A stretch of 43,741 bases of DNA. Source: Xanthobacteraceae bacterium. Lineage in GTDB: Bacteria; Pseudomonadota; Alphaproteobacteria; Rhizobiales; Xanthobacteraceae. Made by a program: the position numbers and the translations under genes. The stretch spans positions 1 through 43,741 of the forward strand of contig JASHOR010000029.1 of NCBI GenBank assembly GCA_030041005.1, in the 5' to 3' direction. Below are positions 19,638-39,592 of this stretch, one piece after another (within the stretch, counting starts at the first letter, position 1; every line of letters starts with the position of its first letter). The notes beneath the pieces were generated by a model. That model did no database searches. It saw only the letters and a program-made list of their open reading frames with translations, and was not told where the DNA came from.

Positions 19638-19677
19638 TTGACAAGACCCGAATAGCCTGATCACGATTTGTGATCAC
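19638..19677 (+). promoter_or_regulatory. Regulon promoter and operator A
   Basis: The -35 TTGACA is at 19638-19643 and a -10-like CACGAT at 19662-19667 (18-bp spacer). The operator TGATCACGATTTGTGATCA spans 19658-19676, covering the -10 and the probable start site. It is the first of six matching sites in the next 20 kb and points to the binding-protein gene at 19739. The geometry implies repression; the GntR protein at 24412-25146 is the likely ligand. Confidence 0.8.
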
Positions 19678-19738
19678 GTCGTTGCGGGAGGACCGCGACC
19701 GGCGCCGTAGGGCAGTGCCGCGGAGAAGGAACAGCACA

Positions 19739-20722
19739 ATGACCGGAAAATGGGTCTCTCATTTCATCGGATGCGCGATCGCAATGTTGCTTGCGCTCTC
19801 CAGCAGCCATGCACAGGAAAACGTCAATGTTAGGTTCTCCTGGAAGCTGAAAGGCGAGTACGCACCGTTCTATCTGGCGCAACAGAAGGGATACTTTGCC
19901 AAGCAGGGACTCAAGGTGCGCCTGGGCGAAGGCGCCGGATCAGAAGCGGCGCTCGGCTCTCTTATTCAGGGACAGGAAGACGTGGTGATTATCCCGGGCA
20001 TCTACGCTCTGTCCGCAGCCAGCAAGGGAATGCCGATCAAAATCATCGCCCTCTATCAGCCCAAGGCGCCGACCGGAATCGTGAGCCATCTCGACAAGCC
20101 GATCATCAAGCCGAAGGACCTCGAGGGTAAGACGCTGGCTTCGACCGTCGGCGACACCACGATGGACTATCTCAAGGTGTTCTGCAGTGAGAACCACGTC
20201 GACTGCGACAAGATCAAGATCGTGATGATGAACGTGCAGGCGCGCCTTCCGCAGTTCATGAACCGGCAGGTGGATGGCATGAGCACCTACTGGAACATTG
20301 ACCTGCCACAGCTCGAGTATAGCACGCATCAAAAATTCGCGCTCCTCGATATGGTCAAATACGGTCAGGTCGTGCCGGGACTTTCGGCCGTGACCAGCGA
20401 CGCCGACATCGCGCGCGAGCCCGATAAGCTCAAGCGCTTTTTGCTCGCCCTCAATCAGGGCTTCGATGCAACCAAGGATGAAGTCCAACCCGCCGCTCAG
20501 GCGCTTCGCGCCGCCTGGCAGGCGGCACCGCCGGAGGAACTGGTCGAAACGCAAGTACGACTTTCGAACGAGACTTTCACAATGCCCGCGGGAAAGGCAC
20601 GCGGCTGGGTGGACGAGAAGGTGTTACAGGCGGCCCTGGGACTGCTGTTGAAATCCGGACAGATCAAGGAAGCCAAGCCGATCAACGTCTACTACAGCAA
20701 TAAGCTGCTCCCCGACCACTGA
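19739..20722 (+). CDS. ABC transporter substrate-binding protein, NMT1/ThiY-like (1)
   Basis: The 327-residue protein has a signal peptide (MTGKWVSHFIGCAIAMLLAL to SSSHA, cleavage near residue 25). The NMT1/THI5-like fold follows, beginning VRFSWKLKGEYAPFYLAQQK. It is a periplasmic receptor; relatives bind pyrimidines, sulfonates, riboflavin or similar molecules. GGAGAAGGA precedes the ATG. It has its own operator and no adjacent permease, so it may use the ABC core at 27.1-28.8 kb. The second receptor at 25712 shares the xRFxWKLKGEYAP opening, so they are diverged duplicates. Confidence 0.88.
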   Translation: MTGKWVSHFIGCAIAMLLALSSSHAQENVNVRFSWKLKGEYAPFYLAQQKGYFAKQGLKVRLGEGAGSEAALGSLIQGQEDVVIIPGIYALSAASKGMPIKIIALYQPKAPTGIVSHLDKPIIKPKDLEGKTLASTVGDTTMDYLKVFCSENHVDCDKIKIVMMNVQARLPQFMNRQVDGMSTYWNIDLPQLEYSTHQKFALLDMVKYGQVVPGLSAVTSDADIAREPDKLKRFLLALNQGFDATKDEVQPAAQALRAAWQAAPPEELVETQVRLSNETFTMPAGKARGWVDEKVLQAALGLLLKSGQIKEAKPINVYYSNKLLPDH

Positions 20723-20788
20723 GCGCAGCGTCTGCTTGCGGCGCCGTTCGGACAAAGACCTTCATAGCCAGGGCGATTTCCGTCGCGC

Positions 20789-20825
20789 TTGACAGGCCGG
20801 ATGTAAGATCACAAGATGTGATCAC
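20789..20825 (+). promoter_or_regulatory. Regulon promoter and operator B
   Basis: TTGACA at 20789-20794 and CAAGAT at 20812-20817 (17-bp spacer) form the promoter. The operator AGATCACAAGATGTGATCA spans 20806-20824. It reads towards the enolase-superfamily gene at 20920 and its downstream creatinase-like partner. Confidence 0.8.
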
Positions 20826-20919
20826 AATCCGCGCGCGCTCGTCCTAAAACGTCGGTCAATCCCGATGCATTGCAGGTGAGCCGTTCGCCGGCGAACCGCT
20901 TCGTCGGCTCCTTCCTTGG

Positions 20920-22095
20920 GTGCTGCTTTTGACCACTTCCAGGATCATTTCGGTCGAGGTCGTTACGGTTCGGCTGCCGCCGCGGCGGGAGCACAAGTGG
21001 ACCGGGCTTACCGAACCCATTGGCCGCTACGTGCTCGTCAGGATGGTGGACGACGCCGGCCGAGTGGGCTGGGGCGAAGCGCCGGCGCTCAAGGATTGGG
21101 GAGGGGAGTTCGGCCGATATTTCGGGGAATCGCCGGCCACTGTTCGCGTTGTGATCGATCGTTATCTCGCACCGGCGGTGACCGGTGCCGATCCGGGAAA
21201 TATCGTCGATCTGCACATGCGCATGGATGCGGTCATTAAGGGCTATCCTTACGCCAAGTGCGCCGTCGAACTTGCCGCCTACGATCTCGCTGCGCGGCGG
21301 GCTGGCCTGCCGGTCCATGCGCTGTTGGGCGGCCATGCCCGCACCCGCATTCCGGTGACCCACTCGATTGGCCTCATTGGCTTCGCCGAGGCGGAAGCGG
21401 AGACCGCGAAGGTCGCCGCAGAGGGCATCAAGACCATCAAGATCAAGGTTGGTGTCGATCCGAAGCGGGATGTCGAGATGGTGCGATTAATCCGCAACGC
21501 GGTCGGGCCGGATGTCGAGCTGTGCGTCGACGCGAATGAGGGCTACAAGACGCCGGGTGAGGCGATCCGCTGCATTCGGCAAATGGAGCAGTACGGACTC
21601 AAATATGCCGAGCAGCCGGTGATGGGGATCGCGCGCATGGCCGAGGTCGCGCACGCCATCGACACGCCGGTAATGGCTGACGAATCCGCGTGGAACGCCC
21701 ATGACGTAACCGAGATCGTCGAACGGCGTGCCGCGGAAATCGTATCAATCTATACGACCAAGCCGGGCGGACTCTACCGGGCCATGGAGGTTGCGGCGGT
21801 GTGCCGGGCCGCCGGCATCGTCTGCAATGTGAATGGCTCGGTTGAAACAGGCATCGGTAATCTGGCGAACGTGCAATTGGCGGCGGCCGCGCAAGCAGTG
21901 ACCTTGTCGTGCGTGGTCCCGGTGTCGACGCCGGCCGAGGAACAGCGCGGTCAGGTTGCGGGAATCTACTACACCGATGACCTGCTCACGCACGGCATGA
22001 AGCTGACGGATGGCACAATCGAGTTGCCGCGCGGGCCCGGCATGGGCATCGACGTCGACCTCGGCAAACTCGCGAAATACACAGTGAAGGATTGA
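20920..22095 (+). CDS. Mandelate racemase/muconate lactonizing enzyme family protein
   Basis: The 391-residue protein belongs to the MLE/dipeptide-epimerase subgroup of the enolase superfamily. Catalytic KxK is Lys174-Ile-Lys176 (TIKIKVG). Metal ligands are Asp204 (VDANEGY), Glu231 (EQP) and the acidic pair D254-E255 (ADES). A third Lys281 (TTKPGG) sits on the sixth strand. These enzymes abstract the alpha-proton of a carboxylate for epimerisation, cycloisomerisation or racemisation. The GTG start has no obvious ribosome site; TTG at 20929 is an alternative. Its partner starts 10 bp after its stop. Confidence 0.9.
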   Translation: MLLLTTSRIISVEVVTVRLPPRREHKWTGLTEPIGRYVLVRMVDDAGRVGWGEAPALKDWGGEFGRYFGESPATVRVVIDRYLAPAVTGADPGNIVDLHMRMDAVIKGYPYAKCAVELAAYDLAARRAGLPVHALLGGHARTRIPVTHSIGLIGFAEAEAETAKVAAEGIKTIKIKVGVDPKRDVEMVRLIRNAVGPDVELCVDANEGYKTPGEAIRCIRQMEQYGLKYAEQPVMGIARMAEVAHAIDTPVMADESAWNAHDVTEIVERRAAEIVSIYTTKPGGLYRAMEVAAVCRAAGIVCNVNGSVETGIGNLANVQLAAAAQAVTLSCVVPVSTPAEEQRGQVAGIYYTDDLLTHGMKLTDGTIELPRGPGMGIDVDLGKLAKYTVKD

Positions 22096-22105
22096 GCGGA
22101 TTTGC

Positions 22106-23239
22106 ATGCGTAAGGACATCATCGAGCGACAGGTCGCGGCGATGAAGGCGGGCGGCTTCGACGCGCTGATCTCCTGCTCTCCCGAGAACTTTGCCTACGT
22201 GGCGGGGTTTGTCGTTCCCTCGCAGCCGCTGATCCGCCATCGTCACGCCATGGTCGCCCTGACCGCGGACGGACGTTGCGGGCTCCTCGGCGTTGACATG
22301 GAAGCGACGACGATTCGCAAGCACGAGCCGGAGGTGCCGAGCTACATCTGGGCCGAGTTCACCGAGGACAGCATGCATGTGCTTGCGCGCATGCTGAAGG
22401 AAATGGGTCTCGCACGGTCGCGGATCGGTATCGAGATGGATTATCTGCCTGCAGGTGACATGGCGCGCCTGCGACAGAACCTGCCTGATGCAGCTTTCGT
22501 GCCCTGCGAATTGCTGCTCGCGCGGCTGCGCCAGATCAAGACCGCGGATGAGGTGGAGCTTCTGCGCCGGTTATCGCGCATTGCCGACCAGTCCATCACA
22601 GATGCGCTGAGGACGGTGCAAAAGGGCAGCTCCGAAATGGACATTGCAGCGGCAATGACCCGCAATGTCTATGCGCTGGGCGCCGAGCAGTTCAAGCTGA
22701 TGATCGTTGCCACTGGTGAGCGCAGTCAATTGCCGAATGTAGGCCCCTCCGAACGCACGCTGCAGGCAGGGGACGTCTGTCGAGTGGAGATCTTTCCATT
22801 GATCGGCGGTTACCACGCCGGAGTGTGCCGCACCGCGGTGGTGCAGCGGCCGCCGGCTCAGGCCGAGGCCATCTGGCAACACCTCGTCGAATGCAAATAC
22901 CTCATGATGGACATGATCAAGCCCGGCGCAAGCTGCCGGGCGATCTATGATGCTTTCATCAAGAAGCTCTCGGCCATGAATTTGCCGCCGATATCATTCG
23001 TCGGGCATGGCATCGGGCTGCACCTGCATGAGGACCCGTATCTCGGCCTGACCCCCAATCTGGGTCGGCAAGGCGATGCCGAACTCGAAGCCGGGATGGT
23101 GCTCGGAGTGGAGCCGCTCTGCTATCAGACCGGGTACGGTTTCGGCATGCAGAACAAGGACATGATGCTCGTGACCGCCAGCGGCTGCGAGTTGCTGTCG
23201 GACTATGCCGACACCGATCGGCTTCTGATTGTGAAATAG
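22106..23239 (+). CDS. Creatinase-like M24 family protein with incomplete metal site
   Basis: The 377-residue protein has the two-domain creatinase/prolidase layout: an N-terminal creatinase domain (about 1-130) and a pita-bread M24 domain. Of the five metal ligands of M24 peptidases, only His301 (VGHGIGLHLHEDP) and Glu336 (GVEPL) are intact. The first Asp is Glu228 (CRVEIF), the second is Gly239 (GGYHAGVCRT), and the last Glu is Lys351 (MQNKDMML). This pattern suggests a metal-independent enzyme like creatinase, which hydrolyses an amidine/urea C-N bond, rather than a peptidase. It is co-transcribed with the enolase-superfamily gene. Confidence 0.85.
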   Translation: MRKDIIERQVAAMKAGGFDALISCSPENFAYVAGFVVPSQPLIRHRHAMVALTADGRCGLLGVDMEATTIRKHEPEVPSYIWAEFTEDSMHVLARMLKEMGLARSRIGIEMDYLPAGDMARLRQNLPDAAFVPCELLLARLRQIKTADEVELLRRLSRIADQSITDALRTVQKGSSEMDIAAAMTRNVYALGAEQFKLMIVATGERSQLPNVGPSERTLQAGDVCRVEIFPLIGGYHAGVCRTAVVQRPPAQAEAIWQHLVECKYLMMDMIKPGASCRAIYDAFIKKLSAMNLPPISFVGHGIGLHLHEDPYLGLTPNLGRQGDAELEAGMVLGVEPLCYQTGYGFGMQNKDMMLVTASGCELLSDYADTDRLLIVK

Positions 23240-23297
23240 CCCGCCGATGTAGCGGCGGCGCGCCGGACCGCCGATCTCGTCTTTGCAACGAGCCTCT

Positions 23298-24410
23298 TTA
23301 ATCCATCGACTGTTCCGCTGCTGAGCGTGCATGGCCTGCAGCCGCTACGGTTTCGAAGGTGCGCGCCAAGCCGTGGCCTGGCAGGTCGCGCGTGATGAAC
23401 ACGATGCGCGAACGATGATCCGCATCGGGCCACCGATCGAGTTCCGCCGGCGGATAAAACACGTGCTGCACGCCGTGTATGACCACCGGTTTTGAGCGGC
23501 CTGCGATATTGAGGAGGCCTTTTACGCGCAGGACTTGCTCGCCTCTGTTGGTGAGCAGCAGAGCCAGCCACTCGGTGAAACGAGTCCAGTCGAGCGGCAC
23601 ATCGGCTGTCAGGCAGAACGTGCCGATCCGATCATCGTGCCGCTTGTCGTCGTGACCGTGGTCTTGCCTGGCGCCGGTGGCGCTTTCGGCGTTTAGCCAG
23701 CGCGCCACGTCGGCGACCTTGCCGCGCTCGCTGAACGGATGCGAATCGAACAGCATGTCGGGCCCTGGGCCCGAGTCGAGCGTGGCCTCGAACAGGGTAG
23801 CCGACGGCGAAAGGGCTTTGAGCCGATCGCGCAGGCGATCGAGGATTGCCGGTTCGACAAGGTCGGTCTTCGTCAGGACCAGGCGATCGGCCATCGCCGC
23901 TTGCTTGACCGATTCGAGATGAGAATCGAGCTGCCCGCCGCCATGCATCGCATCCACAGTGGCGACCATGCCGGTCGCGCAATAGACCTGCGTCAGACTG
24001 GCGTCCGTGAGGAGGGTGTGGATGATGGGCGCAGGATCCGCGAGCCCCGTCGTCTCGATCACCACCCGATCGAACTCGGGAAGCAGCCCGGAGGAGCGCT
24101 TGGCCTGCATATCATCGAGCGTCTCTACCAGATCGTCGCGTACGCTGCAGCAGAGGCAGCCAGAGTTAAGAAGGACGATGTTCTCGTCCACCTTGCGCAA
24201 CAGCAGATGATCGAGCGCGACCTCGCCAAATTCGTTGACCAGGACCGCGGCGGTGCCCATGCGTGGATCGGCCAGCAAACGGCGCAACAGCGTCGTTTTT
24301 CCGCTGCCCAGAAAGCCGGTGATAATCGAGACCGGGATCAACGCGCTCTCACTTACATCTCGGCGATGTCGCTGGTCATCGGCAGGCTCCGTCGAACTCG
24401 ACGGCACCAC
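23298..24410 (-). CDS. COG0523 (CobW/YjiA-type) metallochaperone GTPase
   Basis: The 370-residue protein has Walker [10 protein letters not shown] at residues 32-40, NEFGE at 59-63, the metal-binding CxCC motif at Cys85-Leu-Cys-Cys88, and a TKTDL guanine motif. A His/Asp-rich linker ([13 protein letters not shown]) precedes the C-terminal CobW_C domain. COG0523 proteins deliver zinc, cobalt or similar ions to client enzymes. The GTG start follows the upstream GntR stop by one base, so the two are translationally coupled. With four amidohydrolase-type metalloenzymes in the regulon, a client there is likely but unproven. Its stop faces the creatinase-like gene 58 bp away. Confidence 0.9.
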
Positions 24411-24411: not shown

Positions 24412-25146
24412 TCAGGCCATCAGCCGGAACGAGCCAAAACGCGCGTTATGTCCGTTGAACGTTGACAGCCGAAGCAGCGATTTTGCGGTTTCGCCGATAT
24501 CGCGCACAATCGCTCGCCGCGCCGCGACAGGCCGCCTGGACTTGATCGCCGCCAATAGATGCTCGTGCTGAACCGCGTCCCATGGCATGTCGCTGTCGGT
24601 GAGCGATGTATAGAGGATCGGGCCAACCTGCAACCACAGTGACTCGATCAGCGGCGCCAGAATTGGCGAACGCGCCGCCGCATAGAAGGTGAAATGGAAG
24701 CGCTGATTCATCTCCAGGCATTCGAGTATCTTCCGCCGCCTGATCGCTTGCTGCAGCCGCGAATTGATCGCGGTCAGCTCGCGGATGAGGGCCGGCGTCG
24801 CATTGGCGCATGCGAGTTCCGCCGCGAGCCCCTCCACCGCCTGCCGAGCGCGGGTCAGGTCCTTGAAGCGCTCGGCGCTCATGCGCGGCACCGCCACCGA
24901 TCGATTGGGCAGAATTTCCAGCGCATTGGCGGCGGTGAGCTGGTGGATAGCCTTGCGGACCGGCATCGGACTGGTGCCGAGCATTTCCGCGAGACGGCGA
25001 AGCGTGATGGTCTGGCCGGGCACAAACACGCCGATCATCAGGCCCGAGCGCAGCCTTTCCAGAACGCGGTCCTGCACCTCGCCCCGATGGCGCTTGGCCG
25101 CCGGCGGGCGACGGACCTCCTCGTCGATTGCAATAAGCGGTCTCAT
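24412..25146 (-). CDS. GntR-family regulator (FadR/FCD type), probable regulon repressor
   Basis: The 244-residue protein has a winged helix-turn-helix at about residues 22-88 ([38 protein letters not shown]) and an all-helical FCD ligand domain. FCD domains often use a bound metal and carboxylate ligands. It is the only regulator gene between 19.6 and 42.5 kb, where six identical-type operators occur, so it is the obvious candidate to bind them. ATG 25146 is clear. The COG0523 gene is immediately downstream. Only a GTGATCAC half-site (25371) lies in its own upstream region. Confidence 0.92.
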
Positions 25147-25544
25147 GCCCCGAATCTGCGCTGATCCGTTCTTTGATTTATCACGAACCCGAGCGTACCC
25201 AGTCTCAACAGCATCACGATCAAGGCCTGTGCCAGATCCCCAACGCGCGTCTTGCTACCAACACGACGTCTAATTTCAAAAGCCGCGCCAACCTTGGCGG
25301 CAATGCATCTCTTTGCTTCGCCCGCCGCGCAGCGCTGGCGCACCCAGAGCGCCGCCCGGCCGGCCCAACTGTGATCACGCTTATTACTCGAAGCGGAACG
25401 GCGGGCGCAAGTCCGACTTCGGCTGGGGCACCGCGTCCTGAGAATCAAGGTGCACGGATCGACAGCGCGAAAGAGCTGGCGGTCAGGCTGACCGTCACAA
25501 GCGCCGCCAGGGTGCTGGGCCCGCCGCGCTACGCGCGCCGTCAC
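25147..25544. other. Intergenic region between gntR and the second binding-protein gene
   Basis: No gene is supported in these 398 bases. A single GTGATCAC word at 25371-25378 matches one operator half but lacks the partner half at the usual spacing. The gntR promoter should lie here, but no clear hexamers were found. Confidence 0.4.
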
Positions 25545-25582
25545 TTGACAGTGCGGCTTGTGTGATCACAAAATGTGATATC
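25545..25582 (+). promoter_or_regulatory. Regulon promoter and operator C
   Basis: TTGACA at 25545-25550 and CAAAAT at 25569-25574 (18-bp spacer) form the promoter. The operator TGATCACAAAATGTGATAT spans 25563-25581; its last two bases deviate from the other sites. It reads towards the binding-protein gene at 25712 with a leader of about 130 nt. Confidence 0.78.
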
Positions 25583-25711: not shown

Positions 25712-26728
25712 ATGAAATGCAATCTTCTCGCAAGTCTGGCGCTGGCCCTCGCGCTCGGCGCTGCCGGGTCTGGTGTGCCCGTCGAGGCTCAGCCCGCCAG
25801 TGGACCGCAAACGAGTCCACAAACCAAGGAGCACGTGATTATCCGCTTCACCTGGAAGCTGAAAGGGGAATACGCGCCGCTCTTTGTCGCCCTGGACAAA
25901 GGCTATTATGCGCAGGAAGGCCTCGATGTCGAACTGGCTGAGGGATCGGGCGCCGAAACCGTCGTCAAGATGGTTGGCCTCGGCACCGACCAGATTGCCT
26001 ACGGTCCGGCCACCGTGGGCGCCGAGGCCGTGGACAAGGGATTGCCAGTGCAGGTGATCGCGGTCTATCAGACCCAGGTCCCGATGGCGATCGTCTCGTT
26101 TCCCGACATGCCGCTGAAGACGCCGAAGGATCTGGTGGGCCACACGCTTGGCGTCAGCATCGGCGAGACGTTTGCCAATCTCGTGGAGCCGTTCGAACGA
26201 ATCAACAAATTGGATCCGAGCAGGATCAAAGTCATCCAGATGAACAGCTCGGCGCGCGTCGGTCAATTCATGGCGCGCAAAATCGATTTCATGTCGCTCT
26301 ATCTCACCAACGAGCTGCCGCTGTTCGAGAAAAAGGCCGGCGTGAAGTTCAATGTCCTGAAAGTCTCCGATTTCGGTCTTAAGGTCATGGGCGCAGCCTT
26401 TCTGGTAAATAAGGACTACGCCAAGACGCACGCAAGCACGATGGAGAAATTGCTGCGTGCTACGGCCAGGGGCTATGCGGACGCGAAGAAGGATTATAAG
26501 GGCGCCGTTGCGATCACGGCCAGGCACATGGCGCTGAAGATCGATCCCGAGGTGCTTGACCAGCAGGTCAAGGCAACGATGGATTCCTTGTCCGAGATTC
26601 CCGGCAAGCCGCTTGGCTGGCAGACCAAGGCTGACTGGAAGTCCAATCTCGAACTACTTAAGGCCGGTCATATCATCAACCAGGTCAAAGATCTGCATTT
26701 CTACTACACAAACGCTTATCTGCACTGA
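25712..26728 (+). CDS. ABC transporter substrate-binding protein, NMT1/ThiY-like (2)
   Basis: The 338-residue protein has a signal peptide (MKCNLLASLALALALGAAGS to VEA, cleavage near residue 27). Its NMT1/THI5-like domain opens IIRFTWKLKGEYAPLFVALD and contains ELAEGSGAETVVKMVGLGTD, the usual ligand-site loop. It is a periplasmic receptor for the ABC transporter encoded next. It is related to the receptor at 19739, but clearly diverged, so the two may present different ligands to the same membrane complex. GGGAGG at 25701 supports ATG 25712. Confidence 0.9.
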   Translation: MKCNLLASLALALALGAAGSGVPVEAQPASGPQTSPQTKEHVIIRFTWKLKGEYAPLFVALDKGYYAQEGLDVELAEGSGAETVVKMVGLGTDQIAYGPATVGAEAVDKGLPVQVIAVYQTQVPMAIVSFPDMPLKTPKDLVGHTLGVSIGETFANLVEPFERINKLDPSRIKVIQMNSSARVGQFMARKIDFMSLYLTNELPLFEKKAGVKFNVLKVSDFGLKVMGAAFLVNKDYAKTHASTMEKLLRATARGYADAKKDYKGAVAITARHMALKIDPEVLDQQVKATMDSLSEIPGKPLGWQTKADWKSNLELLKAGHIINQVKDLHFYYTNAYLH

Positions 26729-27129: not shown

Positions 27130-27951
27130 ATGACGCACACAGAGATTTCGGATCAAAAGCACCAGGAGCGGCGGCAGCGCCGCAAACGTCGGAACGTTCG
27201 GCTGCTTGTGGAATCACTGGCGGCGCCGACCGTGGCGATTATCGTACTTGCGCTCTGGCAGTTCGGAGTGCCTCTCCTCGGCCTGTCGGCATTTATCTTG
27301 CCGACGCCGTTGCAGATCGTCGAGCGCATCGGCACCGATTACAGGCTGCTCCTGAACAACACGCTTGTCACGCTGGTGGAAACTCTGGCCGGCTTCGCCA
27401 TCGCCGCGGTCGGCGGCGTCATCACAGCGTTTGCGATCTTCTATTCACGGCTCTTCGAGCGAGCGGTCTATCCGCTGCTGGTGGCGATGCAGACGATACC
27501 GAAGGTTGCGCTGGCGCCGCTGCTGGTGCTCTATCTCGGCTACGACTTTGCGCCGAAATGCTTTCTCGCCTTTCTGCTTGCGTACTTCCCCGTTGTCATC
27601 GCCACCGTCGTCGGCCTCAAGGCGCTCGACAAGGGCATGGTCGATCTGGTTCGCTCAATGGGCGCCAACGAGTGGCAGACCTTTATCAAAATCCGCCTGC
27701 CGGCGGCGCTGCCCAACATTTTCGGCGGTCTGAAGGTGGCGGTCAGCCTTGCGGTGATCGGCGCCGTCATCGGTGAATATGTGGCCGCCGAGCGCGGGCT
27801 CGGCTACCTTCAGCTGCAGGCAAGCTCGCAGTTCGACACCACATTGAGCTTCGCCTCTCTGATCATTATTGCCGCCATCGGCGTGGTGACCTTCTGGGCG
27901 ATCGAACTCGTCGAACGACGAGCCGTGTTCCAGCGCGAGGCGGCGAAATGA
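27130..27951 (+). CDS. ABC transporter permease (SsuC/TauC/ThiX type)
   Basis: The 273-residue inner-membrane protein has about six hydrophobic helices, starting with APTVAIIVLALWQFGVPLLG, and ends in a cytoplasmic ERRAVFQREAAK. The coupling-helix EAA loop reads GANEWQTFIKIRLPAALPNIF. It is the BPD_transp_1 permease class that works with NMT1-like receptors. The gene overlaps the ATPase start by 4 bp (ATGA), so the two are translationally coupled. It is the only permease gene in the regulon. Confidence 0.93.
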   Translation: MTHTEISDQKHQERRQRRKRRNVRLLVESLAAPTVAIIVLALWQFGVPLLGLSAFILPTPLQIVERIGTDYRLLLNNTLVTLVETLAGFAIAAVGGVITAFAIFYSRLFERAVYPLLVAMQTIPKVALAPLLVLYLGYDFAPKCFLAFLLAYFPVVIATVVGLKALDKGMVDLVRSMGANEWQTFIKIRLPAALPNIFGGLKVAVSLAVIGAVIGEYVAAERGLGYLQLQASSQFDTTLSFASLIIIAAIGVVTFWAIELVERRAVFQREAAK

Positions 27952-30004: not shown

Positions 30005-30154
30005 CGTACCTCCAAAAGAGCAAGCCAACGGGCATGCAGAATAGCCGGCGTGCATCCATCACATATGCCTCCGAACATTTCGCACAGCCGCGGAGTCGCG
30101 TACGGCTACCGGCGGTGAAGTCGATGTGAGCATCCCTGTCCGAATGGCTTCGTT

Positions 30155-31309: not shown

Positions 31310-31346
31310 TTGACAATTTGCCGGCGAGATCACAGCATGTGATCAC
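31310..31346 (+). promoter_or_regulatory. Regulon promoter and operator E
   Basis: TTGACA at 31310-31315 and CAGCAT at 31333-31338 (17-bp spacer) read rightward to the deaminase at 31378. The operator AGATCACAGCATGTGATCA spans 31327-31345. The divergent Rieske gene starts at 31192, so the site may also control it, though no good leftward -35 is visible. Confidence 0.8.
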
Positions 31347-32787: not shown

Positions 32788-34218
32788 TCAGTCGTAAAGC
32801 GTCGTCGTGGTCGGAATGTCGGTTCGCATGAGCCCCGCGCGTTCGATTGCTGCCGCCGCAAGTTCGCGCGCCTTGAGGCGGATTGCCTTCTCGTCCACCG
32901 TCTGCACACGGCCGTTGCGAAACAGCGCCTTGCCGTTAACCCATGTTTCCAGGATCGAAGCGCTCGATGCCGAGAAGACCAGCGCCTGGAGCGGATCGTA
33001 GAACGGCGTCCATTCGATGTGATCGAGATCGAACAGTACGAAATCGGCTTTTTTGCCGACTTCCAGCGAGCCGATCTCGTGGTCCCAGAGCAGCGCTTTT
33101 GCACCATCGATCGTCGCGGCGCGCAAAGCCTGACGTGCGGTAAATACGTCGGGCTTGAGTCGGGCGTCTTTGAACATGCCGGCGACCACCAGCATCTGCC
33201 GCATCAGATTGAGGTTGCCGGCCGCCGAGACACCGTCTGTGCCGAGGCCGACACTCATTCCCGCCGCGATCATTTCCGGATACTTGCCGATGGCGGTCGC
33301 ACCCTTCCCCAGCTTGAACGAGGAGCAGGGGCAGAACGCGACCTTCACGCCGTGCCGCGCCATCATGCCGATCTCGCCTTCCTGCACTGCTGCGCAGTGA
33401 GCGATGACGAGATTGTCGGCAAGCCCGCCGGCTTTTTCAACGCGCGCCACCGGCCAGAGTCCGTGCCTCTGCTCGCTTACCTTGGCCTCCTCGATGGAGG
33501 TAGCCAGATGATAAGTGGTGCCGACCCCAAGCCGCTGCGCGAGCTTGACGGCGCCGACATGCAGTTCGAGCGTGCAGGGCTCCTTACCTTCGATATTGAC
33601 CCAGCAGCGCACCCGGCCTTCGAGCGCCTTGTCGTATTTAAGTACGCACTGTTCGAGCACTTGCAGCGCAGTTGCCGCATCCTTGAAGAAATGGTGCTGC
33701 ACCATCTCCTGGTTCCAGCCGCGAGGCAATTCGGCCGGGGGGTTGTCAGCGGCATGCCGCCCGGTGATGCCGCGAATTCCGGTCTCCGCCATCGCGCGCA
33801 CGACGATGCCGGGATCGTACTGTGACCCCATGTCGAGAAAACATGTTGTCCCTGCCCGCAGCATTTCGGTGATCCCGAGCAGAGCACCCCAGTATTCGTC
33901 ATCCTCAGTGATGAACGCATAGAAGGGCTTGGCCCAATGAAACACCCATGCGCGGGTATTCAAGTTGTCGGGAAACACGGCGCGCGACAGCGTCTCGGAC
34001 AGGTGCACGTGGCTATCGACGAAGCCGGGGCAGATCGCCATCATCCGTCCGTCGATTATCCGCTCGAAGGACGTACGGTCGTGGCGCGCGGCAACTTCGC
34101 GCGTCGGCCCGATGTCGGCAATTCGATCATCGACGACGACGACGCTGGCGTCCCGAAGGACGGTGTCGTTCTTGTCAACAAGAAATGCGACGTTCAAGTG
34201 TTCAATCAAAGTGCGCAT
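32788..34218 (-). CDS. Amidohydrolase, TrzA/SAH deaminase-like
   Basis: The 476-residue protein is a subtype-III amidohydrolase. HxH is His70/His72 (VDSHVHLSETL), later metal or substrate ligands are TYHLATSIEE and IAHCAAVQ, and the Asp lies in GTDGVSAAGN. Relatives deaminate S-adenosylhomocysteine, or dechlorinate/deaminate triazines (TrzA/AtzA). ATG 34218 has GGTGGAG at good spacing; an in-frame GTG lies 15 bp upstream. It is the last gene of the seven-gene operon, 25 bp after the fusion protein gene. It is only distantly like the convergent deaminase at 31378. Confidence 0.88.
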   Translation of the reverse strand: MRTLIEHLNVAFLVDKNDTVLRDASVVVVDDRIADIGPTREVAARHDRTSFERIIDGRMMAICPGFVDSHVHLSETLSRAVFPDNLNTRAWVFHWAKPFYAFITEDDEYWGALLGITEMLRAGTTCFLDMGSQYDPGIVVRAMAETGIRGITGRHAADNPPAELPRGWNQEMVQHHFFKDAATALQVLEQCVLKYDKALEGRVRCWVNIEGKEPCTLELHVGAVKLAQRLGVGTTYHLATSIEEAKVSEQRHGLWPVARVEKAGGLADNLVIAHCAAVQEGEIGMMARHGVKVAFCPCSSFKLGKGATAIGKYPEMIAAGMSVGLGTDGVSAAGNLNLMRQMLVVAGMFKDARLKPDVFTARQALRAATIDGAKALLWDHEIGSLEVGKKADFVLFDLDHIEWTPFYDPLQALVFSASSASILETWVNGKALFRNGRVQTVDEKAIRLKARELAAAAIERAGLMRTDIPTTTTLYD

Positions 34219-34243
34219 TGCCAACTCCACCACTCGTAACCGC

Positions 34244-35239
34244 TCAGGATAGCTTTACCCCCTCCTGAAACAGCTCGACCTTGTTGCCGTCCGGATCGGC
34301 CACGTAGATCGTGAGGCCGTAGATGCCATCATGCAGCTCGTTGAAGAACTTCACGTTGGCGGCCTTTAGCCGCTTCGTCGCCGCGCGCACATCGGTTACG
34401 CGGAACGCCATGTGATCGATTTGCAGAGCGTTGCCGGGCCCGCCACTCGTGAGCGCCAGCCCTTGCTTGAACGGGACGAACGGACGGCCGTCGGCGAGAG
34501 GCGCCGCATTGCGCGGGGTAAAGCCAAGCAATTCCGTATAGAATCGCTTGGAAGCTTCGATATCCCCGACCTGCAACAACATGTGGGCGAAATCGATGAT
34601 CCGGGGCGCGGTCTGCGCGTCGATCCAGGCCTGAACCTCGGCCGCGTTCTGCAGCACGCAAAAATATTGAGCCCAAACCTTTTGTGCCGCGGATTCCCAG
34701 TCGGCGTTCACCCCCGATATGCAGTCGGTTACTGCCACCACGTCGTAGTCGCGCAGATAGGCTTCGCGAATCGTCGTCTCCACGCATGCATTGGTCGTCG
34801 TCCCGGCGATGAAGAGCGTACGCACGCCGAGCTGCCGTAGCAGCAGCTCGAGGCGCGTCTCGTAGAACGCACCGAAGCGGTGCTTGCGCAGGACATAGGT
34901 CGGGTTAAGTGCCGCGAGCCCTTTGAGCTCCTCAATGATCTCCGCATCCCAGCTACCGGCAAGACATGATACCTGCCGCCGCTTGGCCGTGTGCGCCGCC
35001 AGCTTCTTCTGCGCCCGGCTGGCGTCGACCGCGAAATGCTCCTGCACGGTCCAGATCACGGGAATGCCAACCTTCTGGCAACGCTCGATCAGCCGCTTCT
35101 GCTCAGGCACCACGGCCGCCAGCCGGCGCGTGTCCACCCCGGAAATTCCCAGCGTGCCCTTCTCGTGCACGAAGCCGTTCTGCATATCGATCACAAGCAG
35201 CGCAGCGCTCCTGATGTCGATGGCATCGAGCGTCGTCAT
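34244..35239 (-). CDS. Isochorismatase-like cysteine hydrolase fused to a VOC domain
   Basis: The 331-residue protein is two domains in one frame. Residues 10-205 are an isochorismatase-like amidohydrolase with the triad Asp19 (VIDMQNGF), Lys119 (LRKHRFGAF) and Cys152 (TTTNACVETT); this family includes N-carbamoylsarcosine amidase, RutB and biuret hydrolase. Residues 215-326 are a glyoxalase/VOC domain (HMLLQVGDIEASKRFYTELL, QIDHMAFRV, DPDGNKVELF), with likely ligands near His219, His276 and Glu322. The junction is continuous with no frameshift. GGAGAG precedes ATG 35239. Hydrolysis of a carbamoyl or amide bond, coupled to a VOC reaction on the same substrate, is the inference. Confidence 0.9.
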   Translation of the reverse strand: MTTLDAIDIRSAALLVIDMQNGFVHEKGTLGISGVDTRRLAAVVPEQKRLIERCQKVGIPVIWTVQEHFAVDASRAQKKLAAHTAKRRQVSCLAGSWDAEIIEELKGLAALNPTYVLRKHRFGAFYETRLELLLRQLGVRTLFIAGTTTNACVETTIREAYLRDYDVVAVTDCISGVNADWESAAQKVWAQYFCVLQNAAEVQAWIDAQTAPRIIDFAHMLLQVGDIEASKRFYTELLGFTPRNAAPLADGRPFVPFKQGLALTSGGPGNALQIDHMAFRVTDVRAATKRLKAANVKFFNELHDGIYGLTIYVADPDGNKVELFQEGVKLS

Positions 35240-35240
35240 C

Positions 35241-35435
35241 TCAACTCTCCTTCTCATCTATGCCGAGCGTGCCGGCGCGGCCCCAGCTATCCTTGGGAAC
35301 ATCCTGGATGATAACGTGCAGGTGATCCGGCTTGCACTTGGCGTGCTCCACCATGGCGTCAGTGATCGCGCGCACAAGGCGGCGCTTCTGTTCGGTGCTG
35401 CGCCCCGACCACATTTGAACGGTGACTACGGGCAT
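35241..35435 (-). CDS. 4-oxalocrotonate tautomerase family protein (2)
   Basis: The 64-residue protein starts MPVVTVQMWSGRSTEQKRRL, giving the catalytic Pro1 after Met removal, followed by the family's beta-alpha-beta fold (ITDAMVEHAKC, HVIIQDVPKDSWG). Arg11 (SGRS) is the conserved active-site arginine position. AAGGAG precedes the ATG. It lies in the seven-gene operon, one base upstream of the fusion gene start, and likely handles an enol/keto intermediate. Its neighbours favour a ring-cleavage or imino-acid product as substrate. Confidence 0.9.
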   Translation of the reverse strand: MPVVTVQMWSGRSTEQKRRLVRAITDAMVEHAKCKPDHLHVIIQDVPKDSWGRAGTLGIDEKES

Positions 35436-35437
35436 AT

Positions 35438-36139
35438 TCAGGCTCCTTGGGAGTGAGTGGCGCCGCTCTGATCCAGGGCGACGGCATCGATCCACCGTGC
35501 CGCCGGCAGAGAGAATCCGGTGGCGAAGTCGTTGCCGCGTCGGTCCTCGCCGCGCGCGAGCCACAGCGGCCGTTTAGCATAGTTGACGAGCGGCCGCACT
35601 TGCGCGGCACGGCGGTTGGCAAGGCTGCGCGGATTCCGGTCGAACAGCGATGTGGCCGGCATGTAGCGGATGACATACCACGCGCCTTCGTGGCATTTTT
35701 GCAGCACGCTGCCGTGAGATTGAAATCGAGCGATGTCCAGCATGAGAACGTTGCCGCTTTCCATCGCGACCGCGGCGATGACACCGGCGAGAGGATCGAC
35801 CGGCCAGATCGAAGCCTCGTCCAGCGATAGCGTCAGCCGATCGAGGTAGAGCTCGCTGTCCCACAAGACGATATCAGGGCCGAGCACATCTTCGACGCAA
35901 TCCAATAATTCGTGCCTCTCGGCGACGTCGAGAAAGGACCACGCCTGTTCCCTGCACGCGTGATATCCGAACGCGTTGTGGATGCCCGATAGCATGTCCT
36001 GATGCGGCGCCGTGCCGAGCAACGTCCCCGCAGCCTCGCGAAGCGGCTGCAGAACTTTGCCCGGCAGGACCGCGGCGATGTCAACCCAACCGGAATTATC
36101 GAAGTGGGTTTTCTCGGTTGCAATCAGTCGCTTCAGCAT
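35438..36139 (-). CDS. Phytanoyl-CoA dioxygenase-like protein, active site degenerate
   Basis: The 233-residue protein resembles PhyH-family 2-oxoglutarate oxygenases in order: FDNSGWVDIAAVLPGKVL, then RHELLDCVEDVLGPDIVLWD, then VLMLDIARFQSHGS and AWYVIRYMPATSLFDRNP. The iron-binding HxD expected after LWDSELYLD reads WPVD (112-115), so the His is missing; His142 may be the distal ligand. An HQD tripeptide (46-48) is too early. It may be a non-catalytic or differently acting member. ATG 36139 directly follows the hydantoinase stop. Confidence 0.6.
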   Translation of the reverse strand: MLKRLIATEKTHFDNSGWVDIAAVLPGKVLQPLREAAGTLLGTAPHQDMLSGIHNAFGYHACREQAWSFLDVAERHELLDCVEDVLGPDIVLWDSELYLDRLTLSLDEASIWPVDPLAGVIAAVAMESGNVLMLDIARFQSHGSVLQKCHEGAWYVIRYMPATSLFDRNPRSLANRRAAQVRPLVNYAKRPLWLARGEDRRGNDFATGFSLPAARWIDAVALDQSGATHSQGA

Positions 36140-36140
36140 T

Positions 36141-37487
36141 TTAGTTCGGACGGGTGACGCATTGGCCGCGGCCGAAGGCACTCTCGTCGACGTTGCCGTT
36201 TTCATAGACGACGCGACCGCGGGCGATAGTCATGACCGGCCATCCTTTGAGCGTCCAACCTTCATAGATGCAGTGCCCATGTCCCGTATGATGAACTTTT
36301 CGCTCCTCGTCCAAGTCGACGACGACGAGGTCGGCATCGGCGCCAGCGAGCAGAGAACCCTTGCGCGGCCATAGCCCGAAACGGCGGGCCGGATGATATG
36401 AGTTGAGCTGGACGAGGCGCGGCAGCGAAAGACCGCGCTGGTGCACGCCGAAATGCAGCATCAGCGAGAGTTCCCACGGGAAGCTCACCACGCCGGGAAC
36501 TTCCTTCCATAGATCCTCGCCTTTTTTCGGAAAGAATGGGACGTGGTCGGTGCCGAGACTGTAGACGGTCCCGTTGAGTACGCCGCGCCACAGACCTTCG
36601 AGGTCTGACTTGTCGCGAAGAGGCGGTGAAATCTTCGCCTTCATGTCGAGATCGTCGTCATAGCAAGTGCGCGTCAAATAGTGCGGACAGGTCTCCACTG
36701 TGACCTCGATGCCGCGACCGCGCGCCTCGGCGGCGAGTACCGGCCCCATTCCGACCGAGGTGTGGACGAGATGCAGAGGGCATTTGGTCCGCTCAGCCAG
36801 GAACAGCATGCGTTTGATCGTCTCCTCCTCGCAGAAGGCGGGACGAGACTCCGTATAGGCGCCGAGATCCTGCCGGCCGGTGGCTTTCAGTTCGTCCTTG
36901 AGCCAGGACGCAATCCCGGTGTTCTCGCAGTGGACGCTGATGACGCCGCCCGGCACTTTCGCCAGGTGCCGCATCGCCGCATAGACCCAGCCGTCGGTGG
37001 CCGGAACGATGCCGATCGGATTGTCCGGCTCGTAGCCGAAATAGCATTTAAACGAACGGACTCCGGTTTCCGTCACGATCTGCGGAATCTCATGAATGTG
37101 CTCCTCGCGCTGGATTCCGAAATGAAAGCCGAAGTCGATCATCGAGTTCTGTTCGCCGACCGCGCGCCGCTCCTTGTAGAAAGGCACGTACGGCCCGCTC
37201 TTGTTGCGGATGTAAAGGAGAACAGTCGAAACTCCTCCGCTCGCCGCGGCCGCCGTCTCGGTGCGCATATCCTCGTTGTAGGGATAGTTGACGCCGAGAT
37301 GGCAATGCGGATCGATCACGCCCGGCATCACCGCCCGGCCCTGCGCGTCGATGACGCGTTTTGCATCCGGCAGCGCGTCGTCGGCGCCGGTCAATACGAT
37401 CCTGCCGTCGTTTACTGCGATTCCGCCCTCGAAAGTGCCTTCGTGATCGATAACCCGCGCATTTCGAAGGACCAGATCAACTTTCAT
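36141..37487 (-). CDS. D-hydantoinase/dihydropyrimidinase-family amidohydrolase
   Basis: The 448-residue protein has the full binuclear site of cyclic amidases: His61 and His63 (DPHCHLG), carboxylated Lys147 (SFKCYFGY), His186 (SVHCEN), His242 (HLVHTS) and Asp314 (LGTDHVPF). It should open a cyclic amide or imide ring (hydantoin, dihydropyrimidine, allantoin or a relative). Start ATG 37487 overlaps the upstream stop by 4 bp. All catalytic residues are present, in contrast to the adjacent PhyH-like protein. The exact ring is not predictable. Confidence 0.92.
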   Translation of the reverse strand: MKVDLVLRNARVIDHEGTFEGGIAVNDGRIVLTGADDALPDAKRVIDAQGRAVMPGVIDPHCHLGVNYPYNEDMRTETAAAASGGVSTVLLYIRNKSGPYVPFYKERRAVGEQNSMIDFGFHFGIQREEHIHEIPQIVTETGVRSFKCYFGYEPDNPIGIVPATDGWVYAAMRHLAKVPGGVISVHCENTGIASWLKDELKATGRQDLGAYTESRPAFCEEETIKRMLFLAERTKCPLHLVHTSVGMGPVLAAEARGRGIEVTVETCPHYLTRTCYDDDLDMKAKISPPLRDKSDLEGLWRGVLNGTVYSLGTDHVPFFPKKGEDLWKEVPGVVSFPWELSLMLHFGVHQRGLSLPRLVQLNSYHPARRFGLWPRKGSLLAGADADLVVVDLDEERKVHHTGHGHCIYEGWTLKGWPVMTIARGRVVYENGNVDESAFGRGQCVTRPN

Positions 37488-38374
37488 GACTGTTCTCCAC
37501 AAATCGCCTCAATGCGCTTCTTAATGCCCGACCACTGGCTGGCGCCGACGGTGACGGGTGCCCGCGACCCCATGCCGCGCGCCCAGACGAATTTCAGGCC
37601 GAGTTCCTTTGCGGTCTCGCGATCGATGCCGCCAGGGGGCGCAGCGAGGTCGACCAGCAACGCATGTTCGGGCAGCCGGGCAAGCACCCCGCGGCCCACG
37701 ATCTGCGCGGGCACGGTCGAGATGATGGTGTCAAGGTCTGGCGCGATCGAAGGGAGCGCCTCAAGCGGATGAGCCTGCGCGCCCATGACGTGAGCGGCGG
37801 CCCGCTGCACGGGATTGCGCGCCGCAACGTGGGTGTGGGCACCCAGCGCAACCATCCAGCGCGTCACCAGCGACCCAATGGTGCCCTGGCCGACCACGCA
37901 GACCCGGGACCGGTGAATGGTGATATCAGTATTCTCGATGATGGCCTTGAGCATGCCTTCGACGATTGCTGGCCCGCGCAGCAGCATAAGCTCCACGTCC
38001 CACTCATATTCGTGCAGCGTGATCGACAGCGACTGACAGTGCGCCTTCAGCGAGTCGTTGGCCCACCCAAGGATGATGTGAGCGGGTGCCCGCATGCCGG
38101 CGAGCATGGCGCGGTCGGGCACGATCGGCGAGGGTGCGGCCGGCGCGAATAAGGCACCCTCGGCAGACATGCCGGGAATAGGGAACAAGGCGATGTTGGC
38201 GGCTCTAAGCGCCGAGCTTGCATCCGTTGCTCGCGTGACGTGAGCAATGCCTTTTTCCGGCCATGGGAATCCAAAGGCGCGCACATCGGCACCGGTCATG
38301 CCGGCTTGGCGCGCGATTTCCTGCTCTCGCCGGTCGCCGCCCACAATCGCGATCGTCTGCTGCTTCCAATCCAA
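37484..38374 (-). CDS. Dipicolinate synthase subunit A-like (SpoVFA/DpaA) dehydrogenase
   Basis: The 296-residue protein matches DpaA in layout. The N-terminal domain opens IAIVGGDRREQEIARQ. The hallmark linker at 131-154 (GPAIVEGMLKAIIENTDITI) precedes a Rossmann motif VGQGTIG (161-167), and DLAAPPGGID is at 242-251. In spore formers DpaA-DpaB oxidises the lysine-pathway intermediate to dipicolinate; this is not a spore former and no dpaB flavoprotein is nearby. Here it may act on a related cyclic imine or pyridine carboxylate. It is operonic with the opine dehydrogenase-like gene (9 bp). Confidence 0.85.
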   Translation of the reverse strand: MDWKQQTIAIVGGDRREQEIARQAGMTGADVRAFGFPWPEKGIAHVTRATDASSALRAANIALFPIPGMSAEGALFAPAAPSPIVPDRAMLAGMRAPAHIILGWANDSLKAHCQSLSITLHEYEWDVELMLLRGPAIVEGMLKAIIENTDITIHRSRVCVVGQGTIGSLVTRWMVALGAHTHVAARNPVQRAAAHVMGAQAHPLEALPSIAPDLDTIISTVPAQIVGRGVLARLPEHALLVDLAAPPGGIDRETAKELGLKFVWARGMGSRAPVTVGASQWSGIKKRIEAICGEQS

Positions 38375-38383
38375 GGCGGTCTC

Positions 38384-39475
38384 CTATCGTCTTTGCGTCC
38401 GCACGCGCGCCATCAGTTGCGTTGACGTGAGGCCTGAAATACGCATCCGTTCGGCGGTCCGACCATTCGCCCGGAAATCGATGCCGGTCAACGCGCCGCC
38501 CAGCTCGAGCAATGATTCCGCCACCGGCGTCCGCACTCCGGCAATGCGAGCAAAGGCGAGGAATGGCAAAAGTCCGTAGCCGAAATCTTCCAGGTAATAG
38601 CGGTGCGACAGCGAGTCCGGCGCCTTGATCCGGCGGTTCGCCTCGCCACGACTGATCGCTCCCACAAGATCGCGTTCGTCGGCATCGTCCGCAACCGTTC
38701 CGATCGCTTTCATCTCCGCGACGAGCGGCGGCAAGGCATGCCCGAACGCTGAAGCCACCGATCGTCGTTCTTCGTCAAGCGAACCCATGACGCGGGCAAC
38801 ACCCGGTGTCATGGCCTCCACATAGAAGGTGAAGTCACCGCGGCGAGCTTCAACCCAGCTCGCCGCCAGCACCGCACCCGGCGGGTGTAGCACCATGTTT
38901 ACGTTTGACAGGCCGCTGGCAAGCACGTCGTCAACCGGAGCGACAATGTCGAACAATGCGCAGGCGCCTGCGAGCGCTGCGTGCCCGCCAGGCAGAGCGG
39001 CTCCCCGCACGCGTTTAGCCCGTCCGGTCACAGTCACGCGCTCCGGCCGATACTTGCGTGCGACGTATGTCAGCGTTGAGAACTCCGCGATCGGCGGCGC
39101 GCTACCCGCCACCTCGCGAAATGCCTGATCGAATTCCAGGGCGCCGCCGGTGTGCCCCGGATTGAGCACGACCGGAATCTTCGTTCCAAGCTGCGATTTC
39201 GCCAGCAGGCAGGCCAGCTCGCGGTGCGATGAGGTGGGAGCGCAGACGAGCACCAGTTCGGCGCCCTTGACCGCGGCGCCGGCATCGCACGTCATGGCGG
39301 TAAGCCGCGCCACGCCCTCACCGAGAACTCCCTCGTAGGCGAGGCCGCCGGCCGCTTCGAAGTGTTTCAACGTATCGGGAGAACGGTTCCAGAGCGTGAC
39401 CGAGTGACCCGCGCGCGTCAGTTCAACCGCCGCCGCCATGCCGCCGGCGCCGGCACCCATGATCGTTACGCGCAT
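38384..39475 (-). CDS. NAD/NADP octopine/nopaline (opine) dehydrogenase-family protein
   Basis: The 363-residue protein has a Rossmann start MRVTIMGAGAGGMAAAVELT, a central LNPGHTGGALEF, and the all-helical opine dehydrogenase C-terminal domain with SNVNMVLHPPGAVL and RYYLEDFGYGLLPF. The family reversibly joins an amino acid and a 2-oxoacid through a secondary amine. It is the first gene of the seven-gene operon and starts 81 bp from operator F. Across that site lies a FAD-type opine-oxidase homologue. Cleavage or formation of an opine-like substrate is the inference. Confidence 0.9.
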   Translation of the reverse strand: MRVTIMGAGAGGMAAAVELTRAGHSVTLWNRSPDTLKHFEAAGGLAYEGVLGEGVARLTAMTCDAGAAVKGAELVLVCAPTSSHRELACLLAKSQLGTKIPVVLNPGHTGGALEFDQAFREVAGSAPPIAEFSTLTYVARKYRPERVTVTGRAKRVRGAALPGGHAALAGACALFDIVAPVDDVLASGLSNVNMVLHPPGAVLAASWVEARRGDFTFYVEAMTPGVARVMGSLDEERRSVASAFGHALPPLVAEMKAIGTVADDADERDLVGAISRGEANRRIKAPDSLSHRYYLEDFGYGLLPFLAFARIAGVRTPVAESLLELGGALTGIDFRANGRTAERMRISGLTSTQLMARVRTQRR

Positions 39476-39555
39476 TGCTCGCTTGCGTTAGGATGGCTCA
39501 TCGCTCTTGCGCCACGACCGCAACGGACGGGAAAACGGGCGAGGCTCGACTGCAG

Positions 39556-39592
39556 AGATCACATTATGTGATCACAGTTGCTGGGGTGTCAA
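39556..39592 (-). promoter_or_regulatory. Regulon promoter and operator F (divergent)
   Basis: On the minus strand TTGACA (39592-39587) and CATAAT (39568-39563, 18-bp spacer) drive the seven-gene operon. The operator, read on the plus strand as AGATCACATTATGTGATCA, spans 39556-39574. On the plus strand the same bases offer CATTAT as a -10 for the FAD oxidase operon, but no good -35 is seen. One repressor dimer here could silence both operons. Confidence 0.8.

What the first reader, a model, noticed from the sequence alone, without database searches (positions are those of the whole stretch)
19638..39592. Six matching operators define a 20-kb regulon
Sites centred near 19667, 20815, 25572, 26915, 31336 and 39565 share the form [T/A]GATCAC-N5-GTGATCA (one half of site C is relaxed). 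Each follows a perfect TTGACA by 11-14 bp and overlaps a CAnnAT -10 at 17-18 bp spacing. Five read rightward and one leftward. The only regulator in the block is the FadR-type GntR at 24412-25146. This is a uniform repressor-promoter design controlling at least 12 genes, and probably up to 18 if the divergent Rieske-decarboxylase and FAD-oxidase units are included.
Basis: partly seen in the sequence, partly recalled or inferred. Interest (0 to 1): 0.9.

Follow-up and report, generated by a model that had tools for sequence, protein, structure and literature searches.

The report
One repressor's six matching gene switches
Six near-identical DNA control sites mark the promoters of a 20-kb gene cluster for taking up and breaking down an unidentified compound, and comparison with related bacteria ties them to the one regulator gene inside the cluster; it is a clear but fairly ordinary local on/off system.

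Summary
Six sites lie at 19658, 20806, 25563 (one mismatch), 26906, 31327 and 39556, each behind a perfect TTGACA. In the 4.9-Mb assembly all 5 exact matches are here. The refined core GATCACA-N3-TGTGATC at up to two mismatches gives these 6 plus 1 other.

The GntR assignment is supported. Of 296 same-family genomes sampled, 8 carry the exact core, and all 8 are among the 20 with a GntR homologue (Fisher 1.4e-9 without the window's own genome). In relatives the sites lie beside gntR or upstream of orthologous enolase/M24 or ABC-transporter genes, usually behind a TTGACA-like box. Spacing is rigid: 32 pairs at N3, 3 at all other gaps 0-12.

Best reading: an FCD-domain GntR repressor binds the 10-bp palindrome TGTGATCACA plus a weaker copy 13 bp away, covering the -10 until a metabolite releases it. 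Thirteen genes lie behind the six promoters. GTGATCAC was already proposed for other GntR regulators (passage in PMC6365646), so this is a new member of a known kind. Binding, repression, effector and substrate are untested.

The parts
19658..19676 (+). Operator A, TGATCACGATTTGTGATCA, behind TTGACA (14 bp before it); promoter of SBP1
   Evidence: weakest of the six against the refined core (1 mismatch)
20806..20824 (+). Operator B, promoter of the enolase-superfamily and M24 genes
   Evidence: sites upstream of the enolase orthologue recur in relatives
25563..25581 (+). Operator C (one half relaxed), promoter of SBP2, divergent from gntR
   Evidence: a site between gntR and an SBP/ABC operon recurs in L066, L067, L068
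26906..26924 (+). Operator D, promoter of ABC permease and ATPase
31327..31345 (+). Operator E, promoter of amidohydrolase AH1, divergent from the Rieske unit
39556..39574 (-). Operator F, leftward promoter of the OpDH-DpaA-AH3-x36-Iso-AH2 genes, divergent from the FAD-oxidase unit
25370..25379 (.). TGTGATCACG, possible weak extra site 224 bp upstream of gntR
   Evidence: 1.08 matches expected by chance in the window, so not established
24412..25146 (-). gntR: GntR-type wHTH plus FCD domain; the proposed repressor
   Evidence: Pfam GntR 1.7e-12, FCD 5.5e-25; nearest solved chain McbR 4p9f, 1.3e-26; clade alignment
23298..24410 (-). CobW-type GTPase gene directly downstream of gntR
   Evidence: orthologues beside gntR in L066 and L068
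19739..20722 (+). SBP1, NMT1/THI5-like substrate-binding protein (behind A)
20929..22095 (+). Enolase-superfamily enzyme (muconate-cycloisomerase-like; start codon uncertain) (behind B)
22106..23239 (+). M24 (creatinase/prolidase-like) enzyme (behind B)
25712..26728 (+). SBP2, NMT1-like substrate-binding protein (behind C)
27130..28760 (+). ABC permease (27130-27951) and ATPase (27948-28760) (behind D)
31378..32757 (+). AH1, deaminase-type amidohydrolase (behind E); nearest solved chain 2paj
32788..39475 (-). Six genes behind F: OpDH 38384-39475, DpaA-like 37484-38374, AH3 hydantoinase/allantoinase-like 36141-37502, x36 35438-36205 (no family), Iso isochorismatase-VOC fusion 34244-35257, AH2 deaminase-like 32788-34233. 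One operon is assumed; there is a 180-bp gap before Iso
28899..31192 (-). Divergent unit at E: Rieske oxygenase 30155-31192, two-part TPP decarboxylase-like 29498-30055 and 28899-29573; regulation by E inferred only
   Evidence: no counterpart in relatives' stretches
39665..42493 (+). Divergent unit at F: DAO-type subunit, Fer2_4 small subunit (40776-41072), Pyr_redox/SO_alpha-like subunit; regulation by F inferred only
   Evidence: no close counterpart in relatives' stretches

Best explanation
The six sites are operators of the FCD-domain GntR regulator encoded at 24412-25146. Shown: the sites, their confinement to this cluster, their position at TTGACA promoters, and their co-occurrence with this regulator and pathway in other genomes. 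Inferred: a GntR dimer binds a TGTGATCACA palindrome; a second, weaker copy 13 bp away (rigid N3) takes a second dimer or an extra half-contact; the complex covers the spacer and -10 and blocks RNA polymerase; a metabolite of the imported compound binds the FCD domain and releases the DNA, switching on import (SBP1, SBP2, permease, ATPase) and catabolism (enolase-superfamily and M24 enzymes, three amidohydrolases, an isochorismatase-VOC fusion, an opine-type dehydrogenase, a DpaA-like reductase) together. The substrate is perhaps a nitrogen heterocycle or cyclic amide (weak). Units divergent from sites C, E and F may be co-regulated.
For: Confinement: 5 of 5 exact hits, 6 of 7 hits of the refined core at up to 2 mismatches, 5 of 6 hits of TGTGATCACA in the assembly; the sixth lies inside an ORF. 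Family sample: 8 of 8 genomes with the exact core are among the 20 of 296 with a GntR match; the 19 other same-genus genomes have neither a GntR match at E<=1e-40 nor the exact core. Of 12 other genomes with a GntR match of 48% identity or more, 11 have a double site with at most 1 mismatch near gntR or at the enolase gene (in G544 on another contig). Motif-led check in the order sample: 3 places outside this genome match the refined core exactly, 2 of them about 300 bp from a GntR homologue. TTGACA: exact at 6 of 6 window sites; exact at 11 of 26 and within one mismatch at 19 of 26 sites in relatives, against 26 and 597 of 8,000 random positions. Rigid N3. No other regulator recognised in the block.
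Against: No binding, footprint or expression data. Fifteen of the 19 large relatives' loci were fetched because they hold gntR and four because they hold the motif, so gntR there is partly by construction; only searches are motif-led. One of the 3 motif-led order loci (L027) has no matched cluster gene within 1.5 kb. Homologues without any double site: L070 (52%, contig ends nearby), L080 and L082 (single palindromes only), L083-L085 (38-41%), L040-L045. In 7 of 26 relatives' sites no TTGACA within one mismatch. Usual FadR-subfamily spacing is GT-N3-AC or GT-N2-AC (PMC4494728, section 10), here GT-N4-AC. AkgR, reported with the same GTGATCAC motif, is described as an activator (passage in PMC6365646). 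No operator lies close upstream of gntR.
Confidence: 0.87

Rival explanations
1. The same GntR binds these sites but acts as an activator, or as a dual regulator, rather than as a repressor.
For: AkgR, with the same core palindrome, is described as a transcriptional activator (passage in PMC6365646), and the FCD regulator CitO is an inducer-dependent activator (start of abstract, PMC4746285).
Against: The sites overlap the spacer and -10, with good TTGACA boxes, the place for occlusion. Atu1419, an FCD repressor, has palindromes over the -10 or between -35 and -10 (passages, PMC7797058).
Confidence: 0.08
2. The operators belong to another, unlinked regulator that recognises the same kind of palindrome, for example one of the seven other FCD proteins of this genome, and the local gntR controls something else.
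For: Eight FCD matches occur in the genome. gntR has no strong operator directly upstream of it in the window.
Against: 8 of 8 motif genomes carry this particular GntR group, while the 19 same-genus genomes lack both. Sites lie between gntR and divergent genes in several relatives.
Confidence: 0.04
3. The sites are chance palindromes or copies of a small repeat with no regulatory role.
For: At 3 mismatches the window count is only modestly above expectation (8 against 4.1).
Against: Exact matches are confined to promoters of one cluster; the sequences around the core differ between sites; design and spacing are conserved in other genera.
Confidence: 0.01

Closest known systems
GTGATCAC-type GntR regulators: AkgR of Rhodobacter sphaeroides and PS417_07240 of Pseudomonas simiae
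   Same: Same 8-bp core palindrome GTGATCAC; GntR-type regulators; PS417_07240 sits at the start of the catabolic cluster it is proposed to control (passage in PMC6365646).
   Different: AkgR is called an activator; single palindrome described there; no sequence comparison with AkgR was made here (its paper, PMC4323418, is not held). Here the palindrome is doubled at 13 bp.
McbR/YncC of Escherichia coli
   Same: Nearest solved chain (4p9f, E 1.3e-26) and best NCBIfam hit PRK11414, far below its cut-off (106 against 225 bits).
   Different: McbR is said to bind AT-rich ATATAT-like sites and dihydrofolate (passages, PMC13343897).
Atu1419 of Agrobacterium fabrum
   Same: FCD repressor of a catabolic cluster using short 10-bp palindromes over the -10 or between -35 and -10 (passages, PMC7797058).
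   Different: Palindrome ATGTATACAT, sites 190 or 109 bp apart, tetramer with DNA looping, effector methylene-tetrahydrofolate; here sites are 13 bp apart.
Additional half-sites beside GntR-family palindromes
   Same: Weaker boxes 7-12 nt from the site centre are described for FadR-subfamily regulators (PMC4494728, section 17); the second copy here lies where such a box would be.
   Different: Here the second copy is nearly as strong as the first and its spacing does not vary.
NanR of Escherichia coli
   Same: GntR repressor with several dimers on adjacent repeats (start of abstract, PMC8012715).
   Different: NanR uses three direct repeats GGTATA; here two palindromes.

Membership tests
FCD-domain (FadR-subfamily) GntR repressor with its local regulon | GntR wHTH plus FCD domain in one protein | tested here: met
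   Both domains above Pfam cut-off
FCD-domain (FadR-subfamily) GntR repressor with its local regulon | Palindromic operators at promoters of a linked catabolic cluster, conserved with the regulator | tested here: met
FCD-domain (FadR-subfamily) GntR repressor with its local regulon | Operator of the form GT-Nx-AC with the usual x of 2 or 3 | tested here: not met
   GT...AC is present in TGTGATCACA but with x = 4; usual spacing from PMC4494728 section 10. AkgR-type GTGATCAC has the same x = 4
FCD-domain (FadR-subfamily) GntR repressor with its local regulon | FCD metal ligands: three His and one Asn/Asp | tested here: inconclusive
   By reading the alignment: Asn-x3-His and a further His present, but the last expected His is Asp in the window protein and in 27 of 28 homologues (all but L045); ligand positions partly recalled, no model was built
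FCD-domain (FadR-subfamily) GntR repressor with its local regulon | Binds the operator and represses; released by a small-molecule effector | not testable with these tools
   Needs purified protein and a deletion strain
AkgR/PS417_07240-type GTGATCAC regulators | Core palindrome GTGATCAC | tested here: met
   motif from PMC6365646
AkgR/PS417_07240-type GTGATCAC regulators | Sequence relationship to AkgR | not tested
   AkgR sequence not fetched; paper not held
Atu1419-type tetrameric FCD repressors | 10-bp palindrome ATGTATACAT with distant paired sites for looping | tested here: not met
   Palindrome is TGTGATCACA, paired at 13 bp; oligomeric state not testable
McbR equivalogs (PRK11414) | Score above the curated NCBIfam cut-off | tested here: not met
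   106 bits against a cut-off of 225

The most novel reading that the evidence does not exclude
The operator is a true two-dimer cooperative element whose N3 spacer is the middle of the -10 hexamer, and the regulator, whose nearest solved relative McbR binds dihydrofolate, senses a pterin- or folate-like ring compound and controls a pathway that degrades that class of N-heterocycle.
Probability: 0.1. Interest if true: 0.6.

Novelty: new member of a known kind. Interest (0 to 1): 0.35.

Why it matters
It gives a well-defined, testable regulator-operator pair for an uncharacterised group of FCD GntR proteins and, through the shared operators, shows which genes of an unknown catabolic pathway are meant to work together. 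The motif can be used to pull further pathway genes out of other genomes. It does not change how GntR repression is understood.

Tried and rejected
Considered and set aside. CRP/FNR-type sites: the spacing does not fit TGTGA-N6-TCACA (recalled consensus). Chance or repeat origin: contradicted. Reading the 19-bp site as one palindrome for one dimer: possible, but the core then reads AC-N3-GT, the reverse of the GT-Nx-AC consensus, and single TGTGATCACA sites occur near gntR or enolase orthologues in L043, L044, L080 and L082, so a 10-bp unit fits better.

Led nowhere or weak: the DNA search with the OpDH gene in 41 genomes found only short chance stretches besides itself. Flanking genes (FKBP, Mrp-like) were sought in 20 same-genus genomes to look for an empty site; they lie on different contigs in the genomes where both were listed, so nothing could be concluded. 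The pathway was not identified; the pterin link rests on AH1 being nearest to 2paj, whose isoxanthopterin deaminase activity is recalled and comes from no call (one search found no paper on it by its titles). In one search my first reading frames for SBP1, DAO, small subunit and PyrR were wrong and were corrected. The first look at TGTGATCACA in print listed 12 papers, judged by title only; searches gave 0, 3 and 9, of which I opened one (PMC6365646).

Rows left out of counts: searches used the window and 19 loci (15 large stretches plus L098, L099, L101, L104); L070, L082-L085 and L040-L045 were not in them. Five of the 32 N3 pairs come from the four loci fetched by the N3 motif itself. Several relatives are near-duplicates (L069/L071, L075/L077, L098/L099), so counts are not independent. 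The second GntR match of G669 was not fetched.
Full report
1. The sites are real. The six sites are present at the stated coordinates, five exact and one (25563) with one mismatch. A 2-kb-scale view of composition showed nothing unusual about the block. Across the 4,914,083-base assembly the exact 19-bp pattern occurs 5 times, all in this block; the four one-mismatch places are site C and three elsewhere. The letters common to the sites point to a tighter core, GATCACA-N3-TGTGATC. At up to two mismatches this core occurs 7 times in the assembly: the six sites and one place on another contig with two mismatches. The 10-bp palindrome TGTGATCACA occurs 6 times in the assembly, 5 of them in operators B-F; the sixth lies within an open frame on another contig. 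Against the loosest setting (three mismatches in the window) the count is only modestly above chance (8 against 4.1), so the case rests on the tight matches.

2. Promoter position. Each site follows an exact TTGACA by 11-14 bp, 6 of 6, while 26 of 8,000 random positions in the same DNA have one in a comparable place. Of the 25 sites in the window and relatives that have a TTGACA within one mismatch, 22 put the core hexamer CAnnnT at 16-18 bp from it. In promoter orientation the last of the three spacer bases is A at 17 of 25 sites, while the symmetric counterpart (first base T) holds at 8 of 25, as expected if the spacer also serves as the -10. A general consensus scan flagged only two of the six promoters; the sixth promoter was cut off by the scan's end.

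3. Which regulator. The block's genes were scanned against Pfam and NCBIfam. The GntR at 24412-25146 (GntR plus FCD domains) is the only regulator recognised; one ORF (35438-36205) has no family match. TetR, LysR and GcrA genes and a cyclic-nucleotide-binding protein lie elsewhere in the window, between 65 and 11679. The genome has eight FCD matches.

4. Comparative test. In a sample of 296 genomes of the same family, 20 have a GntR match at E<=1e-40 and 8 carry the exact core. All 8 are among the 20; Fisher 9.5e-11, or 1.4e-9 without the window's own genome. The 19 other genomes of the same genus have neither. In a sample of 385 genomes drawn from the class, only the window's own has the exact core. 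In 397 genomes drawn from the order, searched with the looser 19-bp pattern, three places outside this genome match the refined core; two (L011, L012) are about 300 bp from a GntR homologue (56% and 43% identical) and one (L027) has none of the window's genes within 1.5 kb.

5. By GntR identity: of 12 other genomes with a match of 48% or more, 11 have a double site with at most one mismatch near gntR or at the enolase gene (in G544 that gene is on a separate contig; in G516 it is 10 kb from gntR). The exception, G403, has a short contig. Of 7 genomes below 48%, two have a double site (G592, G514), two have only single TGTGATCACA palindromes (G406, G648) and three have neither (G669, G550, G471). 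Outside the family, L043 and L044 have single palindromes upstream of their GntR, and L040, L041, L042 and L045 have none.

6. What sits behind the sites elsewhere. In relatives the sites lie upstream of orthologues of the enolase-superfamily gene (L098, L099, L101, L104, L105, L107) or beside gntR and an ABC-transporter operon (L100, L102, L106). TTGACA is exact at 11 of 26 and within one mismatch at 19 of 26 of the relatives' sites, against 26 and 597 of 8,000 random positions; 7 of 26 lack it. [quoted passage not shown]

7. How it probably works. An FCD GntR dimer most likely binds TGTGATCACA, which has the GT...AC form of the GntR family with a 4-bp spacing. A second, usually weaker copy lies 13 bp away. 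Adjacent extra half-sites 7-12 nt from the centre are described for FadR-subfamily regulators (PMC4494728, section 17), so the second copy may be a strong version of these, or a second dimer's site. Covering the spacer and -10 implies repression; this step and the effector are inferred. [quoted passage not shown]

8. The pathway. Behind the sites are two NMT1-type binding proteins with a permease and an ATPase, an enolase-superfamily enzyme, an M24 enzyme, two deaminase-type amidohydrolases, a hydantoinase/allantoinase-like enzyme (nearest solved 1gkr), an isochorismatase-VOC fusion (RutB- and biuret-hydrolase-like), a dehydrogenase nearest to 1bg6 and a DpaA-like reductase. Some relatives add a molybdenum hydroxylase and a luciferase-like monooxygenase. 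This suggests breakdown of a nitrogen-containing ring, with low confidence. The Rieske, TPP-decarboxylase and FAD-oxidase units had no close counterpart in the relatives' stretches searched.

9. Against what is known. GTGATCAC has been proposed as the site of the GntR-like PS417_07240 and noted among AkgR sites (passage in PMC6365646). The nearest solved protein is McbR, reported to bind dihydrofolate (passages in PMC13343897). Atu1419 uses a different 10-bp palindrome and acts as a tetramer (passages in PMC7797058). Searches of the held papers for TGTGATCACA, for TGATCA with GntR/FCD/operator, for GTGATCAC with GntR and for GATCAC with GntR and Rhizob showed no description of this regulon by title or, for the one opened, by passage. 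The verdict is a new member of a known kind.

Noticed in passing
31378-32757: Amidohydrolase AH1 is very close to the solved protein 2paj (E 6.3e-143) and scores above the NCBIfam cut-off for PRK12393; 2paj is recalled as an isoxanthopterin deaminase, hinting at pteridine-type substrates.
   Followed up: partly
28899-30055: Two overlapping genes resemble the beta and alpha subunits of sulfopyruvate decarboxylase but score below the NCBIfam cut-offs: a split TPP decarboxylase of unknown substrate.
   Followed up: no
39665-42493: Three-gene FAD oxidase (DAO subunit, Fer2_4 small subunit, Pyr_redox/SO_alpha-like subunit) resembling opine or hydroxyproline oxidases (recalled).
   Followed up: no
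34244-35257: Isochorismatase and glyoxalase/VOC domains fused in one protein; in several relatives only a stretch of about 120 residues matches, so the fusion seems not to be universal.
   Followed up: no
24412-25146: In the GntR clade the last expected FCD metal-binding His is Asp in the window protein and in 27 of 28 homologues aligned (by reading).
   Followed up: partly
L010, L015, L019, L020, L022, L029, L030, L031: AGATCACCATGCGTGATCT, a match to the loose 19-bp pattern, recurs in many unrelated families of the order with similar flanks, probably a conserved coding stretch; it is not related to this regulon.
   Followed up: no
7635-8366: A GcrA-type cell-cycle regulator gene lies in the left part of the window.
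   Followed up: no
35438-36205: Conserved ORF x36 in the F operon has no Pfam or NCBIfam match but has 40-44% relatives in L066 and L067.
   Followed up: no
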